This document shows, in pieces, positions 8,453 to 58,841 of a stretch of 64,000 nucleotides of DNA. Made by a program: the position numbers and the translations under genes. Each line of letters starts with the position of its first letter. Position 1 is the first letter of the stretch. The notes beneath the pieces were generated by a model. The model did no database searches and was not told the origin of the DNA. It worked only from the letters and a program-made list of their open reading frames with translations. This DNA comes from Candidatus Jettenia sp. AMX2 (lineage in GTDB: Bacteria; Planctomycetota; Brocadiia; Brocadiales; Brocadiaceae): contig CP129469.1 of assembly GCA_030583665.1 (NCBI GenBank), positions 2,223,043-2,287,042 of the forward strand. Reading direction: 5' to 3'.

Positions 8453-11400
8453 ATGGATACAACTGAATCAAATGAGGTACCTGGAATTTCCTTAGAGCAT
8501 GACAAGGTTGTAAGGCTTTTCACCTATCTGAAGGAACTTTGCGCTTTACGTACAACCCAGGTACGCAATATTGCAGATTACGATCAGGTCTTTTGGCTTG
8601 GTGACCTTCCGCACCACAAGTTGTGCCATTGTGTGTTCTGGCATTTGACCGATCCGACGATACCAACATCCGAGTATCATGCTGATTCGTGGATGGAAAT
8701 CCGCAAACCTGTGATCAAAAGTCCTCCCGAACTTCCAGAAGAATTGGAACCATGGGTCAAAGATGAGGAGCTAACAGATTCTTCGTTGAGTGAGCCAGGC
8801 TTCTACGAACAAATTCCACTTTCAGCACTTCAGGACGACTCCGATTCCGATACAGACCTAAATGTACTTGTATCAATTAACGATTATCCACACATCCTTG
8901 ATGAGTATATCAATTACATTGAAACAAAGTGGAAACATTGGGCATACGAAGATCGTGAATTACAAAAGGTTCAGAAGGCTTACAATAAACTATTCAATAT
9001 TTATCAACGGCAGAAAAATCTTGGAGAACAATATGAGGTTATTGTCGGGGCTGGACTTCTCGTATGGAAATCACCGAACAGCGGAGAAATCAAGCGCCAT
9101 ATTCTCGCCATTCAAACGAGAATCGAACTTGACAAGGACAGAGGAACATTGAGCTCAGGGCCGGCACTTGACGGCCCACAGCCGATGCTTGAATGTAGTC
9201 TGCTGGAGACTACGGACAGACCAAACCCAACTGACCTCACAGACATTGAAAAAAATATAATCTTACTGGACGGTGATCCATTGAATACTTCTGGACTCGA
9301 ACGCGTGCTGCGAGGATTCTCCCATTCGCTTCCTATTCCCGGGGATTACGCACCTTTATTTGAACATACCGGAGGAACGTCCGAAAAACCGATTGTCATA
9401 CTCGCACCTGCTTTGATTCTCCGCAAGAGAACAAGACAGACATTCGAGGCATTTTACAATCAGATAATTGATCAAATCAAGGATGGGGAGGAACTACCTG
9501 AGAATATCCGGAGGATTATTACTATTGTTGGTGATTCTCCCAACGCAGAAAAGGAAGCAGTTGTAAGACATTTGGATGCTACAACGCCAACTTTATCAGA
9601 CACTGAGCTGTATTTCCCGCTCCCTGCTAATGATGAGCAAAAACAGATTGTTCAGAAAGCAGAGCATCGACTTGGCGTGCTTGTCCAAGGACCGCCAGGC
9701 ACAGGTAAGTCTCACACAATTGCAAACCTCATATCTCATTTTCTGGCTAATGGTAAACGTATTCTTGTTACCAGTGAAACACCGCGGGCCCTGGATGTCT
9801 TGCGCAAGATGCTACCTCGAGAGATTGAAGATCTTTGCGTGGTCTGGTTAGGCTCCGATCAAGAATCGCGTGACGCCCTAAATAAGTCTGTGAAAGGAAT
9901 TATCGGGCGAAAAGAAAGCTGGAATAAGTCAAGGGATCTTAATCTGATTGACCAGTATGCACGCCAACTTGATACAGAGCGAAAAGAACAGGCAAAATTA
10001 CGACACGACTTACGAGCCGGCAGGGAGGCAGACATATATAAGCATTCAAACGTGTTCGGTCGTTACTCGGGAACGCTTCAGCAGATTGCCGAACAGATTA
10101 ATCAAGATCGTGATCAATTTCAGTGGTTTGCTGATAGACCAAGAGACGTAACTGATCCTGTTGTTACGGCAGATGAATTATTGAAGATGTCACAAATACG
10201 CCAGAAACTGACCCCTGATATTATCGAGCAACTCAAGTATCGCCTTTTTCCCTTAGAGCAGTTGATTCAACCCAATGAATTCTGCCGACTTGTGGACGTC
10301 GAACAAAAAGCCTATCTTGCGCATAAAGAGGCACAAGACAACCACAACTATCCGGGTTACGCTCAACTATCTAACCTTGACCGTAAGAAGCGGGATGAAA
10401 TCAAAGAGATGATTGAAGTGATTCTCACGGCACAGGATGCTCTTACCAGGCATTTTCATTCATGGGTGGAACATGTCTCCCGTGAAATTTTGGGGGATTA
10501 GGATCGCGTATGGCGGGAAATTCTCACTTCAACGATTGATCATATCGACCGCATTGAATATTTGCTAAATAAGTATGGCACTATGGAAGTGTCAGGCTTG
10601 GATAACAAAGACCTCCATCTCGTAAAAAATCATGCAACTGCACTCAAGAAACACTTCGAGATGGGTAAAGGGCATGGTTTCTGGATTTTCAAATCTCGTG
10701 TTGTGAAGAATAATCTCTATCTTATCAAATCTGTAACAGTTAACGGGAAATTCTGCAATAATTTACAAGCTTTAAGCGAACTTATGGCATGGATTGAAAT
10801 CTCGACACGGATAAAGAATCTCGGTGATTTATGGAAGGGGATTACAACACCCCCAATGGGAAACGTTGTTCTTCAGTGTGCTGCCTATCGTAACCTGTGC
10901 AAACCGATAGAGCAAGCGCTGGCACTGCATGATCGAATTGAGGAAATACGCAGAACATGCCGCAATTATCCGGGTATTCGTTTACCTGCATGGCATTTTC
11001 AGGACGAAGTGCAAGCTTTTGGCAAGGCCCTCAATGCCTTGAATCTTGAAGAGGAGTTTGCAACTACACAGCAGGTCTTTACCACTTTTGCCGAATTACT
11101 CACGGATTTCGCTAATTCCGTTCACAGCCATGCTTCAACCAGACAACTCCTGCGGGCAGTCAATGAAAGAGATGGCGAACTTTACCTGAACACATACGAT
11201 ATCTTGTCATCTCTTCATACTTCGGCAAATGAGTACAACTATGCTTGCGATGTTAACAGACGTTTTCATACCTGTGCCCCACTAACTTGCGACAGATATG
11301 ACAAATCCTATTCTGAACCAGCATGGAATGAGCACTTTAAGGTATTTGAGGAAGCATGGATTTGGGCCAAGACAGATCGTTGGCTCGATGAAGTAAGCGA

Positions 11401-49624: not shown

Positions 49625-51241
49625 TTAATGCCTGTGCGCATGGCCTGCGCCTTCGGCTTCTTTTTTCTCCGGAATTTCCCCAACAACAGCATTGGTTGTA
49701 AGCAGCAACGCAGAAATACTTGCACCATTCTGTAAAGCCGTTTTTACAACCTTAGCTGCATCGATAATCCCCGCTTCAACCATATCAGTGTATTTTCCAT
49801 GATACGCATCGTAACCAAAATTACCCGAACCTTCTTTTACTTTTTGAAGGATAACGGCGCCTTCAAGGCCGGCATTTTCAGCTATCTGCTGAATGGGCTT
49901 TTCGACAGCCATTTTAACAATATTTATACCAACCTTCTCGTCTCCCTTAGTTGGCAGGGTGTCCAACACCTTTGATGCCCTTATAAACGCAACCCCTCCG
50001 CCGGGTAAAATACCCTCTTCTATAGCAGCCCGTGTAGCATTTACCGCATCTTCAATACGTAATTTTTTTTCCTTCATTTCAACCTCGGTAGCTGCTCCAA
50101 CATTAATCTGGGCAATGCCGCCGGAAAGCTTTGCAAGCCGCTCCTGCAACTTTTCCCTGTCATACTCTGAGGTAGTTGTTTGTATCTCTGTTTTTATTTG
50201 TGAAATTCTTCCCTGAATTTCTTTTGGATCGCCGGCACCTTCAACGACAGTCGTCTTTTCCTTATCAATAATAATCTTCTTTGCGCTGCCCAGATCAGCA
50301 AGCTGTATTTCGGAAAGCTGTATCCCTAAATCTTCAAATAATGCTTTGGCGCCTGTAAGAACAGCAATATCACCCAACATTGCCTTTCTTCTGTCACCAA
50401 AACCCGGCGCCTTGACAGCAGCACAGTGCAGCGTGCCGCGGAGTTTATTGACGACAATGGTAGTTAACGCTTCGCCCTCTACATCCTCGGCAATAATAAC
50501 GAATGGTTTTCCTGCCTTGGCAATTTTTTCCAACAAAGGAACCAAATCTTTTATAACAGACAATTTTTTTTCATAAACCAGTATATATGGATTCTCAAAC
50601 ACCACTTCCATTGTTTCGGGTGAGGTCACAAAATAAGGAGATAAATATCCCCTGTCAAACTGCATGCCCTCAACCAAATTAACTGAAGTCGCCAGGCTTT
50701 TTCCCTCTTCCACGGTTATCACCCCATCCTTACCCACCTTTTCCATTGCATCTGCGATTTGCTCCCCAATCTCAGCGTCATTGTTTGCAGCAATTGTGGC
50801 AATTTGGGCAATTTCCTTTTTCCCTGAAATCCTGATACTCATAGAGGTGAGCTCTTTTGTCAGTGCCTCTACTGATTTTTCAATGCCTCGCTTTATATCT
50901 ACAGGATTGGCGCCTGCCATGATGTTTTTGAGACCTTCTGCATATATCGCCTCGGCAAGAATTGTCGCTGTAGAAGTGCCGTCACCTACCATGTCATTTG
51001 TTTTCGAGGCAGCCTCCCTTACCATTTTTGCCCCCATGTCCTCATACGGATCTTCAAGCTCGATTTCCTTTGCAACGGTAACGCCATCATTCACAACGGC
51101 AGGAGAACCAAAGCTTTTTTCAATTACAACATTACGGCCTTTCGGACCTAAAGTAACCTTGACGGCACGAGCCAGTTTCTCTATGCCACGTTTAACAGCT
51201 TCACTGGCTTCATGACCATAGATGATTTTTTTTGCAGCCAT
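49625..51241 (-). CDS. groEL: Chaperonin GroEL, operon copy
   Basis: The 538-residue 60-kDa chaperonin has an intact equatorial domain ([35 protein letters not shown]). The apical and intermediate segments are normal. The C-terminal tail is unusual: it ends EGAGHAHRH instead of the common GGM repeats. It starts 17 bases after groES with AGGAGG in between. A second GroEL at 54064 has a different tail, so the two may serve different clients. It is expected to form the cage with the GroES of the same operon. Confidence 0.97.
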
Positions 51242-51258
51242 TACAACCTCCTGAAATA

Positions 51259-51546
51259 TTATTCAACAACAGCCAGAATGTCATCCTCAGACATTAACAG
51301 ATACTCCTCACCACCTATCTTCACTTCTGTACCACCGTAAGAACTAAATATCACCTTGTCACCTTTTTTAACCTGAAAGCCCGTCCGCGCGCCGCTCTTC
51401 AACATTTTTCCATCCCCAAGAGCGGTAACAATGCCCTCCCTGGGCTTCTCTTTCGCTGTATCAGGCAGCACAATCCCCCCCTCCGTCTTCTCTTTAGCTT
51501 CAATCCTTTTTATTAAAATCTTATCACCCAATGGCCTTACATTCAT
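51259..51546 (-). CDS. groES: Co-chaperonin GroES
   Basis: GroES has 95 residues from ATG 51546 ([20 protein letters not shown]), with AAAGGAG upstream. The mobile loop segment ([16 protein letters not shown]) and the C-terminal [10 protein letters not shown] are typical. The frame is open back to an ATG at 51603 that overlaps the stop of the receiver gene by four bases. The 19 extra residues do not fit the family, so 51546 is chosen. It is the only groES in the window, although there are two groEL genes. Confidence 0.95.
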
Positions 51547-51599
51547 AAAACGAGACACTCCTTTCTTTTTCCACGGTCCAGTTAAAACATGTAACAGAC

Positions 51600-52022
51600 T
51601 CATTTATAAAAATAATATTTAGCAATAACCTGCTCTACGGAATCTTGTAATATATGAATATTGATAGGCTTCGGTATCAGAGTATACGCATTTTCACAGA
51701 TAAGATCTATCTGAAGTTCTTTCGATATATCCGCAGATATAAAAATACAGGGAATGAGGATCTGCATCTCTTCTTTTATGATCTTAAACGTCTCGAGACC
51801 ACTATAATCGGGAAGGTGTACATCCAGAATCAGGAGATGCACCTCTTCTGCCTTAGCAATCTTAACAGCTTCCCGTCCGCAACTGGCAAGGTAAGTAATA
51901 TAACCCTTCGTTTCAAACACATCTTTCAAACTATCACGACAGGATTTATCGTCATCCGTTATAAGAAGCGAGTAGTTCCTGGCACAGGGGTCTAATACTG
52001 CCATCATATTGAAAACCCTCAT
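51600..52022 (-). CDS. Single-domain response regulator (receiver only)
   Basis: The 140-residue protein is one CheY-like receiver domain. The acidic pocket (LLITDDDKSC), phospho-acceptor Asp in LILDVHLPDYSGLE, the Ser switch in IFISADIS and the Lys in LIPKPINI are all visible. There is no output domain. Start options are 52022, 52007 and 52004. GAGGG lies eight bases before 52007, which I favour. It precedes groES by about 53 bases, and the -24/-12 promoter at 52052-52070 reads into it. It is probably the first gene of a three-gene operon with groES-groEL. Its sensor partner is unknown. Confidence 0.9.
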   Translation of the reverse strand: MRVFNMMAVLDPCARNYSLLITDDDKSCRDSLKDVFETKGYITYLASCGREAVKIAKAEEVHLLILDVHLPDYSGLETFKIIKEEMQILIPCIFISADISKELQIDLICENAYTLIPKPINIHILQDSVEQVIAKYYFYK

Positions 52023-52051: not shown

Positions 52052-52070
52052 GGAGCAAACTATATACCGA
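52052..52070 (-). promoter_or_regulatory. Candidate sigma-54 promoter of the receiver-groES-groEL operon
   Basis: On the minus strand TCGGTATATAGTTTGCTCC has GG and GC separated by ten bases, as sigma-54 requires, and TTTGC at -12. It matches the promoter candidate of the second groEL in 15 of 19 positions. The GC lies about 50 bases before the favoured start codon. No good sigma-70 boxes compete nearby. Confidence 0.65.
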
Positions 52071-52247
52071 AAAACTTTTGTAAATTTTCTGAATTTGAAA
52101 TAAGCCCCTTTTTTGCAAACACGAAAGAATCTCTCAGTGTTGCATTCGTCTGTCAGACAATTATTTACAGCAATACAAAACTAACGCTTCCATGTTTTTG
52201 TATACATCCACCCTCCATTGCAAGAATTCCGTTTGATTCTATTATAT

Positions 52248-52300
52248 TGCCATTTTGACACTCCAGAGCAATACTGCTTCCAATTACTGCCACTTTGACA
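52248..52300. promoter_or_regulatory. Paired palindromic operator sites upstream of the groESL operon
   Basis: TGCCATTTTGACA (52248-52260) and TGCCACTTTGACA (52288-52300) are imperfect versions of TGTCATATTGACA. They are 40 bp apart and about 180-250 bp upstream of the -24/-12 element. The same pair, in perfect form, stands upstream of the second groEL. The remainder of 52023-52523 holds no gene apart from an in-frame upstream extension of ubiA from 52443. Confidence 0.65.
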
Positions 52301-52523
52301 GATTCTAACGAGTTTCCTCATTCCATCCTTGATTAGTAATTCACATATTCATATAATTTCTAAGAATCGGGAAAACCTGCTCTTCCGGCTGTGCCATTTA
52401 CGATTTTGAGCTGTTTAATCTTGTTCTCGAGAACGTGGTGGCATGGATTACAGGTATGTACGCAGACATCAGGAGTCCCATAAAACATTTGCCACGTTAA
52501 AGAATATAGACATTGAGGTTGCT

Positions 52524-53405
52524 ATGGATATTCCGCTCATACTAAAAAAAACGGGTTCAATACTAGGTCTAATTAAATTTCCGCATACCATCTTCTCATT
52601 ACCTTTCGCTGTCATGAGTGCACTCCTTGCATCAGGCGGCTTACCGTATCCCAGACAGTTATTCTTCATTCTTGGTGCATTAATAGCAGCACGGAGCGCC
52701 GCTATGTCTTTTAACCGGTTAGTTGATACCGGTTATGACCACTCAAATCCCCGCACTGCCTATCGCGTTGAACTACAGGAAAAGATTGGCAGAAGAAATC
52801 TATGGATATTTACCATATTTTGTATTTCACTCTTTCTCGTTTTTGCATGGTTGCTCAATTATTTGGCGCTTTATCTCTCCCCCCTGGCAATTCTGATAAT
52901 TTTCGGGTACTCCTATACAAAGCGTTTTACACATTTATCTCATTTCGTGCTTGGCCTTGCATTAGCGCTTTCACCGGTAGGTGCATGGATAGGAATCAGG
53001 GGAACGATGGCATTTGCGCCTGTCTTACTGGCAATTGCCGTGGTTTTATGGACCGCCGGATTTGATATTATCTATGCGTGCCAGGACATTGAACATGATA
53101 TAAGCTCAGGATTATACTCTATTCCTAAAAAACTGGGGATCAAAGGTGCACTCATACTTTCCGGCATATTACATTTCTTAATGGTTATCGTATTACTGAT
53201 ACTTCCCATGTATACCGGTCTGGGCATAATCTATTCAGCTGGAATCTGTATTATTGCTGCACTATTGTTTTATGAACATTCACTGGTAAGACCCAACGAC
53301 CTTTCCAGGCTCAATACTGCTTTTTTTACCGTCAATGGCATGATTAGCATAGGCATAATGTGTATTACCATGATAGATATTTTTATCCAAAAGACCGGGT
53401 TTTAA
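52524..53405 (+). CDS. UbiA-family prenyltransferase (4-hydroxybenzoate polyprenyltransferase-like)
   Basis: From ATG 52524 (MDIPLILKKTG) the protein has 293 residues. GAGG precedes it, and the frame is open back to 52443, but the extra residues do not fit the family. Two Asp-rich motifs bind the prenyl diphosphate: NRLVDTGYDHSNPRTAYR (about 69-86) and DIIYACQDIEHD (about 190-201). About eight membrane helices are visible. It may be UbiA or MqnP of the futalosine menaquinone route, because planctomycetes use menaquinone. The exact quinone step cannot be told from sequence alone. Confidence 0.88.
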   Translation: MDIPLILKKTGSILGLIKFPHTIFSLPFAVMSALLASGGLPYPRQLFFILGALIAARSAAMSFNRLVDTGYDHSNPRTAYRVELQEKIGRRNLWIFTIFCISLFLVFAWLLNYLALYLSPLAILIIFGYSYTKRFTHLSHFVLGLALALSPVGAWIGIRGTMAFAPVLLAIAVVLWTAGFDIIYACQDIEHDISSGLYSIPKKLGIKGALILSGILHFLMVIVLLILPMYTGLGIIYSAGICIIAALLFYEHSLVRPNDLSRLNTAFFTVNGMISIGIMCITMIDIFIQKTGF

Positions 53406-53419
53406 AAACCTGACCCGAT

Positions 53420-53644
53420 TTATTTCCTGGCCAACAACCACATAATAAGAGAAAAGATGATGCTTATGATAATTCCCGTTGTAAGAGGAAAATAAAAAGT
53501 CATATTTTTCCTTTGAATAACAATATCCCCTGGAAGCCTTCCGAAAAACGGAACCTTACCACCAAGCATAAATAGCCCGCCAATGATAATCATAATAATT
53601 CCAAGAAATAGTAACATCTTGCCAAGTACATTCAATTCACCCAT
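53420..53644 (-). CDS. DUF2905 membrane protein
   Basis: The 74-residue protein has two membrane helices (about 6-28 and 50-71) flanking the family motif KVPFFGRLPGDI. The length is typical of DUF2905, which has no known function. It converges on the ubiA-like gene (14 bases) and diverges from groEL2, whose regulatory sites lie in the shared 420-base gap. Confidence 0.9.
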   Translation of the reverse strand: MGELNVLGKMLLFLGIIMIIIGGLFMLGGKVPFFGRLPGDIVIQRKNMTFYFPLTTGIIISIIFSLIMWLLARK

Positions 53645-53794
53645 ACTTTCCTCTCCGGATAACGAATAGCATAGTATTCTTCATTTTATTTTTAATAATA
53701 GCAAAATTCCCTACTACCTTTCAACACATGGTTGGGTTATTTTGGGCTCGTTTACAAAATTTTCTGAACATTGTATTCAAAACGCCGACCATGC

Positions 53795-53849
53795 TGTCAT
53801 ATTGACAACAAGTGGGAATTATTTCAACAAGAATGCTGTCATATTGACA
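53795..53849. promoter_or_regulatory. Paired perfect palindromes upstream of groEL2
   Basis: TGTCATATTGACA occurs at 53795-53807 and again at 53837-53849, each preceded by TGC. The centre-to-centre distance is 42 bp, four helix turns. Each half-site TGTCA/TGACA is a perfect inverted repeat. They stand about 135-190 bp upstream of the -24/-12 element, where enhancer-binding proteins usually bind. The gap 53645-54063 holds no gene. Confidence 0.75.
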
Positions 53850-53980
53850 TATTTACAACGGTGATAAATTTATTAATCATTTTTCATTAGAGCATAATGA
53901 TATTTAATCTTATTGATATACAACAACTTAACTTGCAACTTTTGAATAATACCGGATAACCGAACATGACTATTCATGCA

Positions 53981-53999
53981 TCGGCATTCATTTTGCTCC
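53981..53999 (+). promoter_or_regulatory. Candidate sigma-54 promoter of groEL2
   Basis: TCGGCATTCATTTTGCTCC has GG (53983-53984) and GC (53995-53996) separated by ten bases, and TTTTGCT at -12. It shares 15 of 19 bases with the promoter candidate of the other groEL operon. The start codon lies 68 bases beyond, with AGGAGG in between. Confidence 0.7.
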
Positions 54000-54063: not shown

Positions 54064-55701
<1,638 letters not shown>

Positions 55702-55751: not shown

Positions 55752-55780
55752 AACAAAGCCCCGCAATGCGGGGCTTTGTT
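55752..55780 (+). terminator. Rho-independent terminator after groEL2
   Basis: A perfect 13-bp stem AACAAAGCCCCGC / GCGGGGCTTTGTT with loop AAT, followed by ATT. It separates groEL2 from the hsp20-lon unit. Confidence 0.92.
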
Positions 55781-55841
55781 ATTCATTGTTCCGGAGATTT
55801 GCCTCTCCCGGAATATTATTAAAAAAACACTCTATACCTTC

Positions 55842-55869: not shown

Positions 55870-55921
55870 ACAAAATTATGATATGATATGATTAATTTCC
55901 TTCATGGAGGTTGGTAATTCT

Positions 55922-56374
55922 ATGATACCAATAAATTATCCTATTGCCGGCTATAAAGCCGATGCCAAATATAATATTGAAAATATTACGAAAAGTTTTT
56001 TCTTCTTTAATAAAGATATAGACGTCAGCACATCAACACCCTGGCAGCCCCCAACAGACGTATATGAAACTCCAGATGAAATCGTGGTAAAGACTGCTAT
56101 AGCCGGAACCAAACCGGAGAACATTCAGGTTGTCTTTTCAGAGCAGACACTCACCCTGAGCGGATACAGAGCAGATCCATCAATTCATGAGAACACCTGT
56201 TTTTATCAGGTGGAAATCCGCTACGGGTATTTTGAAAGGAGTATTTCTATTCCAAAACCCATTGATGCTGATAACATTCGGGCTACCTACAGGGAAGGTT
56301 TCCTGCAGGTTGTTTTACCAAAAACAAGGCAGCAAACATCAAAAACCTTGCTTATAAAAATTAATTTTCCGTAA
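55922..56374 (+). CDS. Small heat-shock protein (Hsp20/alpha-crystallin)
   Basis: ATG 55922 is favoured because GGAGG lies 11 bases before it; an in-frame ATG at 55904 has no ribosome site. From 55922 the protein has 150 residues. The alpha-crystallin domain starts at about PPTDVYETPDEIVVKTAIAG. It contains LTLSGYRADPS and the consensus-type YGYFERSISIPKPIDADNI, and ends near LQVVLPKT. The C-terminal IxI anchor is weak (LLIKINF). It is followed after 22 bases by lon, so holdase and protease are coexpressed. Confidence 0.92.
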   Translation: MIPINYPIAGYKADAKYNIENITKSFFFFNKDIDVSTSTPWQPPTDVYETPDEIVVKTAIAGTKPENIQVVFSEQTLTLSGYRADPSIHENTCFYQVEIRYGYFERSISIPKPIDADNIRATYREGFLQVVLPKTRQQTSKTLLIKINFP

Positions 56375-56396
56375 TTACCCAAAGGTATGAAAGTGT

Positions 56397-58841
56397 ATGA
56401 CAAACAAAGAAAATAATAATCCACCGGAAGATCATACCCTGTTAGCACCGGACGCTGGTATACATACGATCAATAAACCAAACAGATTAAAAATACCGGA
56501 TGAGTTACACATCCTTCCCATCAAGGATACGGTGCTATTCCCCGGTATGGTAGCGGCAATCAATATCACCACCGAAAGAGATCTCACCATGCTGAACAAC
56601 GTTCTTGCCACCCACCGGTTTTTGGCAATCGTAGCACAAAAAGAAAAAGAGGCGAGGAACATGAAGCCTTCAGACCTCTATGAATACGGAACAGCAGCAG
56701 TAGTTCTTCAGATGCTTCGTATGCCGGATAACACTGCGAAAATACTCGTACAGGGTGCCAAACGAATCAGGGTTGATGAATATGTTCAAACAGACCCTTA
56801 CTTCAAGGCCAAGGTAACAATTATTGAGGATATTGTTGAGGCTGACAAGGAAACGGAAGCCCTGTTCAGAAATGCCAATGATCAGTTCATCCGCATAATC
56901 AATATGGTACCAACACTCCCGGAAGAACTGAAAATAGCCATTCTTAACATTGACCATCCAGGCCGTCTTGCAGACATGATTGCAGCCCATTTGAATCTCA
57001 ATGTTTCCGAAAAGCAGCAAATACTGGAAATCATCAACGTTAAAGCCCGCTTACAAAAGATAACAACCTATCTTACCCGTGAAATGGAAGTAATGGAAAT
57101 GGCATCGAAGATACAATCTCAGGTAAAGAGTGAGATGGAAAAAGGGCAAAAAGAATATTTTCTGAGACAGCAGTTAAAGGCAATACAGCAGGAATTGGGA
57201 GAAGAAGATGAGCGCTCTGTTGAAATCAAGGAATTAAAGGAAAAAATTGAAGCAGCAAAAATGCCTCCTGAAGTAAAAAAAGAGGCTGAATCAGAATTAA
57301 AACGGCTCTCAAAAATCCCTCCTGCTTCTGCAGAATATACCGTTTCCAGAACCTACATGGACTGGCTGGTATCCCTCCCATGGTCGGTCTCCACGAACGA
57401 TAACCTTGATATTTCATCAGCGCATAAGATATTGAACGAGGATCATTATGATCTGGAAAAAGTTAAAGAAAGGATTCTCGAATATCTTGCAGTCCGGAAA
57501 CTAAGACAGGATATGAAAGGTCCTATTTTATGTTTTGTCGGACCGCCGGGTACAGGAAAAACATCGGTAGGGATGTCAATCGCCCGCGCTATGGGGCGAA
57601 AATTCGTCCGCATGTCGCTCGGCGGGGTACGCGATGAGGCTGAAATCAGAGGGCACCGGCGCACTTATATCGGCGCATTGCCGGGCCGCATTATTCAGGG
57701 ACTGAAAAAAGCAGGAACAAATAACCCTGTTTTCATGCTTGATGAGATTGACAAGCTTGGAACTGATTTCAGAGGTGACCCTTCAGCGGCCCTCCTGGAG
57801 GTACTCGATCCCGAACAAAACCATGCATTCTCGGATCATTATTTAGAAGTACCTTTCGATCTTTCAAAAGTACTATTCATAACAACCGCAAACATCCTGG
57901 ATCCGGTTCCCCCTGCGCTCCGTGACCGGATGGAGGTATTGGAACTTCCCGGATATACCGCAGAAGAAAAATTGCTAATTGCAAAACAATTCACCATAGC
58001 GAGGCAGTTAAAGGCACACGGACTTACAGAAGCAGAGATTACTTTTGATGATGATGCAATCAGTACCATTATTACCGAATATACCCGTGAAGCAGGTATC
58101 CGGAATCTCGAACGGGAAATCGCTAATATTTGCAGAAAGGTAGCAAAGGCAATTGCCTCCGGTGAAAAGGATTTTGTTCACGTTACCGCTGATCAGGTAT
58201 CCGACTATTTAGGACCTTCCAAATTCTTTTCGGAGGTTGCAGAACGAACTACCGAACCCGGGGTAGCCACAGGTCTTGCCTGGACACAAACAGGGGGTGA
58301 AATACTCTTTATTGAAGCCACCAGCATGCCGGGTACCGGAAAACTCATGCTTACCGGACATCTGGGTGAAATCATGAAGGAATCGGCCCAGGCAGCATTG
58401 AGCTATATTAAGTCCAAAGCAGACAAAATGGGGATTAAAATCGATGATTTTAATAAATACGACTTTCATGTGCATGTCCCGGCAGGTGCTATTCCCAAAG
58501 ACGGCCCTTCTGCCGGTGTAACCATTGCTATAGCAATGATTTCACTTTTAAAGGGAATACCTGTTGTCCCCTATGTAGCGATGACAGGCGAAATAACCCT
58601 TCGCGGAAATATTCTGCCAGTCGGTGGTATAAAGGAAAAAGTGCTGACAGCCAAACGGGCAGGGATAACCACGGTTATTTTACCCAAAAGAAACGAAAAA
58701 GATCTTACCGACGTTCCGGAAAATGCAAAAAAGGAAATGAGGTTTCTCTTTGTAGATAAAGTAGATGACATGCTGCCTGTCGTTTTCGGAACAAAAAAGC
58801 CCGAAGAAGCCATTATGAAAGACCGGCTGGTTGCAGTCTAA
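56397..58841 (+). CDS. lon: ATP-dependent protease Lon (La)
   Basis: The 814-residue LonA protease has the N-terminal substrate domain at about 34-230 ([18 protein letters not shown]). The AAA+ Walker A is [19 protein letters not shown] (about 380-398), the Walker B is [12 protein letters not shown], and [14 protein letters not shown] is the typical linker. In the protease domain the catalytic Ser is in [15 protein letters not shown] (about 703) and the Lys in [14 protein letters not shown] (about 746). The length is normal. It is the second gene after hsp20. Confidence 0.97.

What the first reader, a model, noticed from the sequence alone, without database searches (positions are those of the whole stretch)
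52052..53999. Two groEL loci share a -24/-12 promoter and paired 13-bp palindromes
Seen: TCGG(T/C)AT-type elements with GG-N10-GC spacing stand before the receiver-groES-groEL operon (52052-52070, minus) and before solo groEL2 (53981-53999, plus), matching at 15 of 19 bases. Each has two upstream sites of the type TGTCATATTGACA, 40 and 42 bp apart, about 135-250 bp from the promoter. Established: sigma-54 promoters need exactly this GG/GC spacing and enhancer-binding activators at distant, helically phased sites. Inference: an unknown enhancer-binding protein controls both chaperonins. Bacterial groE is usually under HrcA/CIRCE or sigma-32, and neither signal was seen here.
Basis: partly seen in the sequence, partly recalled or inferred. 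Interest (0 to 1): 0.85.

Follow-up and report, generated by a model that had tools for sequence, protein, structure and literature searches.

The report
Sigma-54 enhancer switch for bacterial chaperones
In this anammox bacterium, and in many other planctomycete genomes, genes for protein-folding chaperones carry the same unusual control region, a sigma-54 promoter with a pair of enhancer palindromes at fixed spacing, so a control circuit that we could not find described probably runs protein quality control there in place of a usual heat-shock switch.

Summary
Both groE promoters have GG-N10-GC elements matching at 15 of 19 bases, each with two TGYCANNNTGRCA sites 40 or 42 bp apart. In the 3.46 Mb genome such pairs occur at three places (about 0.001 expected): the two reported, and a third before groEL3-groES-groEL4. 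All three groE loci therefore carry pair plus -24/-12. The pair recurs in 83 of 392 Planctomycetota genomes (reversed control: none), nearly always 40-46 bp centre to centre. Of 60 sampled places outside the anammox family, 58 precede groEL, groES-groEL (often behind a stand-alone receiver), dnaK or hsp20. rpoN is present. HrcA was not found in this genome, nor convincingly in its family. The best candidate activator is an NtrC-type regulator with its kinase beside pnp; relatives sit directly upstream of pair and dnaK in two other families. A different, GAF-like activator is linked to the pair in two further families, so the activator's identity is only moderately sure. Sigma-54 promoters at planctomycete chaperones were predicted in bulk in 2025 (PMC12316311); the enhancer code, its spread and the candidate activator appear new.

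The parts
52052..52070 (-). -24/-12 element TCGGTATATAGTTTGCTCC of the receiver-groES-groEL1 operon; GC lies about 32 bp before the receiver start codon
   Evidence: sequence; pattern match at a conserved position in relatives
52248..52260 (-). palindrome TGTCAAAATGGCA (minus-strand reading), promoter-proximal enhancer site
52288..52300 (-). palindrome TGTCAAAGTGGCA (minus-strand reading), promoter-distal enhancer site, 40 bp from its partner
51600..52022 (-). stand-alone receiver-domain protein, 140 aa, first gene of the operon
   Evidence: Pfam Response_reg over nearly the whole length
51259..51603 (-). groES (true start probably at 51546, internal ATG)
   Evidence: ORF and BLAST against chaperone references
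49625..51241 (-). groEL1, 538 aa
53795..53807 (+). palindrome TGTCATATTGACA, promoter-distal enhancer site of groEL2
53837..53849 (+). palindrome TGTCATATTGACA, promoter-proximal enhancer site of groEL2, 42 bp from its partner
53981..53999 (+). -24/-12 element TCGGCATTCATTTTGCTCC of groEL2
   Evidence: sequence; conserved in relatives
54064..55701 (+). groEL2, 545 aa, without groES next to it

Best explanation
The elements are control regions of a sigma-54-dependent chaperone regulon. RNA polymerase with RpoN waits closed at the -24/-12 element. An NtrC-family activator binds the two palindromes (C)TGYCANNNTGRCA(G), about four DNA turns apart, as two dimers, assembles an AAA+ ring, reaches the promoter by looping and opens it by ATP hydrolysis when a stress is signalled. 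All three groE loci of this genome (four groEL genes) are controlled in this way, and HrcA/CIRCE plays no part. Most likely activator (about 0.55 on its own): the response regulator of the kinase/NtrC-type pair beside pnp (L334:7370-8731 and 8735-9610; genome 2,062,369-2,064,609). The receiver encoded first in the groES-groEL1 operon probably tunes the circuit by feedback. Shown: the sequence elements, their conservation, the gene association, rpoN, no HrcA found. Inferred: use of sigma-54, looping, activator identity, inducing signal, receiver role. The confidence given is for sigma-54/enhancer control, not for the activator's identity.
For: Three pair places in the genome, all at groE loci, about 0.001 expected. 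In class relatives every pair-bearing locus read has a -24/-12 element at a set distance and then groEL or receiver-groES-groEL. Phylum sample: 83 of 392 genomes with a pair, reversed control none; 58 of 60 places read precede chaperone genes, -24/-12 match on the chaperone side in 46 of 57 and on the other side in 5 of 57. Promoter consensus over 135 units GGCAT-N5-TTGCT with A 94%, TTGC 91-100% (GG and TGC were required by the search). rpoN present, 16 full activators present, HrcA not found. Activator: relatives of the pnp-linked regulator lie directly upstream of pair and dnaK in two families and group with it in a tree.
Against: No transcript or binding data. 11 of 57 phylum places lack a match to the strict -24/-12 pattern (at least one has a looser GG-N10-GC). 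Another activator type (GAF-like N-terminus) is linked to pair plus groE in families f24 and f59. Presence of the candidate's HTH family does not track the pair: it is nearly universal in the phylum, and a few pair-bearing genomes lack a match. Most phylum genomes have no strict pair.
Confidence: 0.82

Rival explanations
1. Same sigma-54 enhancer switch, but the activator in this genome is another of its 16 NtrC-type regulators, and lineages use different activators on the same DNA code.
For: GAF-like activators with HTH NKSRVT..IPRQTLYNK lie upstream of pair plus groE in families f24 and f59; the candidate HTH family is present with or without the pair.
Against: No GAF-type relative was seen among the own EBPs; the own genome has one regulator with the IG..TLYRK helix found next to pairs in four separate loci.
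Confidence: 0.35
2. The pairs are operators of a repressor or of a sigma-70-type activator, and the GG-N10-GC elements are incidental.
For: Palindromic 13-mers in pairs also suit repressors; sigma-70-like hexamers exist near both genes.
Against: -24/-12 elements recur at set distances on the chaperone side across the phylum; sites lie 90-200 bp upstream, far for a repressor; sigma-70-like matches are at shuffle level (13 found, 13.9 expected).
Confidence: 0.07
3. The sites belong to a NorR-type nitric-oxide regulon (NorR sites are GT-N7-AC from memory, which these palindromes fit), chaperones responding to nitrosative stress.
For: Resemblance to a recalled site consensus; anammox cells handle nitric oxide.
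Against: The best candidate activator has a receiver, not a GAF domain; the same code precedes dnaK and hsp20 in planctomycetes that are not anammox bacteria.
Confidence: 0.06
4. Chance or recent duplication of one promoter region between the two neighbouring groEL loci.
For: The two loci are about 2 kb apart.
Against: A third locus 1.8 Mb away has the same arrangement; about 50 genera share it with diverged sequence between the sites.
Confidence: 0.01

Closest known systems
Predicted sigma-54 promoters at chaperone genes of Planctomycetia and Bacteroidota (PLoS One 2025, PMC12316311)
   Same: Sigma-54 promoters predicted, by scoring matrix, at GroEL, GroES, DnaK, DnaJ, GrpE and IbpA genes, enriched in Planctomycetia with fewer in Phycisphaerae.
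   Different: No mention of anammox genomes, palindromes or upstream activating sites in its text. The paired enhancer code, the receiver gene, spread to other phyla and a candidate activator are added here.
HsfBA of Myxococcus xanthus, activating the heat-shock gene lonD (described in PMC9109919)
   Same: Kinase plus NtrC-like response regulator directly controlling a heat-shock gene.
   Different: Target is lonD and secondary-metabolite genes; groEL there is described as under sigma-32 and HrcA. The Myxococcus binding site was not compared.
MXAN_4468, orphan receiver beside groEL2 of Myxococcus xanthus (PMC9040617)
   Same: A stand-alone receiver encoded next to groEL; it lowers groEL expression when phosphorylated.
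   Different: Works through HrcA and its own gene sequence; HrcA was not found here.
Chlamydia hrcA-grpE-dnaK operon with tandem sigma-66/sigma-54 promoters (PMC8762339)
   Same: Sigma-54 promoter at a chaperone operon in the PVC group.
   Different: HrcA represses the operon there; no paired enhancer code is described in the passages read.
HrcA/CIRCE
   Same: Inverted repeats control groE.
   Different: CIRCE is TTAGCACTC-N9-GAGTGCTAA near the start site; no such element and no HrcA found here.

Membership tests
Sigma-54-dependent promoters | GG-N10-GC (-24/-12) element | tested here: met
   at all three groE loci; conserved in relatives
Sigma-54-dependent promoters | rpoN gene in the genome | tested here: met
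   one PF04552 match, E 3.5e-61
Sigma-54-dependent promoters | transcription starts about 12 bases after the GC and depends on RpoN | not testable with these tools
   needs transcript mapping and a mutant or in vitro transcription
Enhancer (NtrC-type) controlled genes | palindromic activator sites about 80-200 bp upstream, on one helix face | tested here: met
   135 promoter-linked units, centre spacing 40-43 bp in 125 of them, most 90-200 bp from the promoter
Enhancer (NtrC-type) controlled genes | a specific bEBP binds the sites | tested here: inconclusive
   candidate from gene neighbourhood, HTH signature and tree; no binding data
HrcA/CIRCE regulon | hrcA gene | tested here: not met
   no PF01628 match in this genome; one marginal match within a 1197-aa frame in 33 family genomes
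HrcA/CIRCE regulon | CIRCE element before groE | tested here: not met
   best match 6-7 mismatches of 18 in the window and around the third groE locus, none at groE
Sigma-32 (RpoH) regulon | rpoH gene and sigma-32 promoter before groE | not tested
   only a sigma-70-type consensus scan was run, at shuffle level
NorR regulon | activator with N-terminal GAF domain sensing nitric oxide | tested here: not met
   for the candidate activator only: it has a receiver domain
NorR regulon | GT-N7-AC sites | tested here: inconclusive
   the palindromes fit the consensus as recalled, but the consensus was not read in a source

The most novel reading that the evidence does not exclude
A dedicated kinase/NtrC-type pair with sigma-54 forms an ancient chaperone (heat-shock) regulon across Planctomycetota, with members in Poribacteria and Zixibacteria, which stands in for HrcA/CIRCE in anammox bacteria; a co-transcribed orphan receiver gives feedback.
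Probability: 0.45. Interest if true: 0.85.

Novelty: new variant of a known kind. Interest (0 to 1): 0.72.

Why it matters
How planctomycetes and anammox bacteria control their chaperones is little studied, and HrcA/CIRCE does not explain it here. A defined DNA code (paired CTGYCANNNTGRCAG, centres about 41 bp apart, plus -24/-12), a short list of target genes and a named candidate activator make the question directly testable. It would put chaperone synthesis under an ATP-driven, probably phosphorylation-gated switch, an unusual logic for a stress response, and would explain how several groEL copies are controlled together. The motif also lets others find the regulon in new genomes by a simple search.

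Tried and rejected
Self-regulation of the activator: no TGYCANNNTGRCA site in the roughly 3.5 kb around any of the 16 EBP genes. Orthology by whole-protein search with the first groE-linked activator (L072): dominated by the AAA domain, uninformative for this genome. Presence/absence profile of the candidate HTH against the pair: not discriminating. A Desulfovibrio sigma-54 regulome paper searched for the motif: nothing. The first whole-genome pattern missed the third groE locus; a second pattern found it. A treekit run stopped on overlapping groups and was replaced by FastTree. L303 (gap 23) is taken as chance; L249 has only a receiver gene downstream.

Full report
What was checked. The -24/-12 elements agree at 15 of 19 bases. 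The groES-side palindromes are TGCCATTTTGACA and TGCCACTTTGACA, so the shared consensus is TGYCANNNTGRCA rather than TGTCATATTGACA. At the window's base composition about 12 single sites and 0.001 pairs are expected in the whole genome.

Genome context. The window lies in one 3.46 Mb contig. Same-family genomes include contigs titled Candidatus Brocadia and Candidatus Kuenenia (L114 and G014, L088 and G030 agree in contig length and position), so the host is an anammox bacterium of that family; its genus is not named by the tools. Pair searches over the genome give three places: the two reported ones and 475912-475965, upstream of groEL3-groES-groEL4 and then dnaJ, with GCGGCATTATCTTTGC about 116 bp before the start codon. 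The search found four groEL genes; all lie downstream of such a region.

Conservation. In the class, 37 of 75 genomes have a strict pair, most of them in the anammox family. Three classes repeat: gap 27 before receiver-groES-groEL, gap 29-30 before groEL2, gap 28-29 before a third groEL. Across the phylum 83 of 392 genomes have a pair, and the reversed control gives none. Some genomes without a strict hit have a pair with one mismatch or with TGCCA halves, so 83 is a lower bound. In family f3 a single palindrome and a conserved -24/-12 remain before groEL2. Sixty places outside the anammox family were read: 57 precede a chaperone gene by automatic annotation (GroEL first 25, receiver-GroES-GroEL 15, Hsp20 8, GroES-GroEL 6, DnaK 3), one more is groEL near a contig edge, one has only a receiver gene, and one (gap 23) looks like chance. 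A -24/-12 match stands on the chaperone side in 46 of 57 and on the other side in 5 of 57. Outside the phylum, pairs precede receiver-dnaK in two Poribacteria MAGs and hsp20-dnaK or hsp20 in Zixibacteria MAGs, and a DegP/HtrA-like gene (named from its sequence only) in a deltaproteobacterial MAG. MAG labels can be wrong through contamination.

Mechanism. Pair, distance and -24/-12 together are the anatomy of an enhancer-dependent sigma-54 promoter (established knowledge). rpoN is single copy and 16 full NtrC-family activators are present. Spacing between palindrome centres is 40-43 bp in 125 of 135 units and 46 in six, about four helical turns, which suits two dimers on one face. The extended site is CTGYCANNNTGRCAG. 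HrcA was not found in this genome; in its family one marginal match turned up inside a much longer frame. CIRCE is not seen. Sigma-32 was not tested properly.

Activator. Four activators that end within about 130 bp upstream of a pair (two planctomycete families with dnaK downstream, one deltaproteobacterium, one Peptococcaceae) all have a recognition helix of the type IG..TLYRK, against roughly one in six of the distinct activators collected by then. Numbers are small, and the last two loci stand before oxidoreductase-like genes, not chaperones. This genome has one activator with that helix, a REC-AAA-Fis protein with a HisKA kinase directly before it and pnp next door; the same neighbourhood recurs in relatives. 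In a tree it groups with the two dnaK-linked activators and with the best HTH matches from other pair-bearing genomes (support 0.94); as those matches were chosen by HTH similarity, that part is partly circular. A second activator type with a GAF-like N-terminus (by resemblance; Pfam did not name it) lies upstream of pair plus groE in families f24 and f59. I put about 0.55 on the pnp-linked regulator for this genome.

Receiver. The 140-aa protein before groES is a bare receiver. The same gene order recurs widely, and receiver-dnaK occurs in Poribacteria. In Myxococcus an orphan receiver next to groEL2 lowers groEL expression through HrcA (PMC9040617). As HrcA was not found here, feedback on the kinase or activator is more likely; this is inference.

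Known work. A 2025 promoter-matrix study reports sigma-54 promoter enrichment at chaperone genes in Planctomycetia and Bacteroidota (PMC12316311), and its text does not mention anammox genera, palindromes or upstream activating sites. A 2004 paper on enhancer-binding proteins of Pirellula is cited in PMC2754498 but is not held, so its overlap with this finding is unknown. HsfA of Myxococcus is a precedent for an NtrC-like activator of a heat-shock gene (PMC9109919). Rhodopirellula induces GroEL, DnaK and Hsp20 on heat shock (PMC2754498), but whether its genes carry the pair could not be checked. Only openly licensed papers were searched.

Verdict.

Noticed in passing
L345:5912-11477 (genome C1:475912-481477), outside the window: Third groE locus, groEL3-groES-groEL4 followed by dnaJ, with the same pair and -24/-12 element.
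   Followed up: yes
L334:6840-7115 (genome C1:2061839-2062114): The last 91 residues of the candidate activator (end of AAA lid plus the Fis HTH) are repeated as a separate reading frame just downstream of its gene, together with flanking DNA; it could make a small DNA-binding competitor or be a decaying duplicate.
   Followed up: partly
L271-L278 (genus g80, family f33): Pair with a wider, constant 46-bp centre spacing and -24/-12 at a constant distance before an hsp20 gene in all eight species read.
   Followed up: partly
L091 and L094: In a deltaproteobacterial MAG and a Peptococcaceae strain the pair overlaps the end of an activator gene and precedes oxidoreductase-like genes, so the same DNA code serves other regulons.
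   Followed up: partly
L078:2055-2108: Deltaproteobacterial MAG with the pair and a -24/-12 element before a DegP/HtrA-like protease gene (named from its sequence only).
   Followed up: no
L055, L057, L065, L067, L074, L081, L084 and others (Alicyclobacillus sp. ALC3): Many arrays of TGTCANNNTGACA repeated about every 41 bp, scattered over the chromosome; unrelated to chaperones and unexplained.
   Followed up: no
window 55904-58841: An hsp20 gene and lon follow groEL2 on the same strand, behind a GC-rich hairpin with a T-rich end near 55755-55785; no palindrome pair precedes them.
   Followed up: no
window 5194 (+), 6411 (+), 34861 (-): Three further strict GGYAYN5TTGC elements in the window, not examined.
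   Followed up: no
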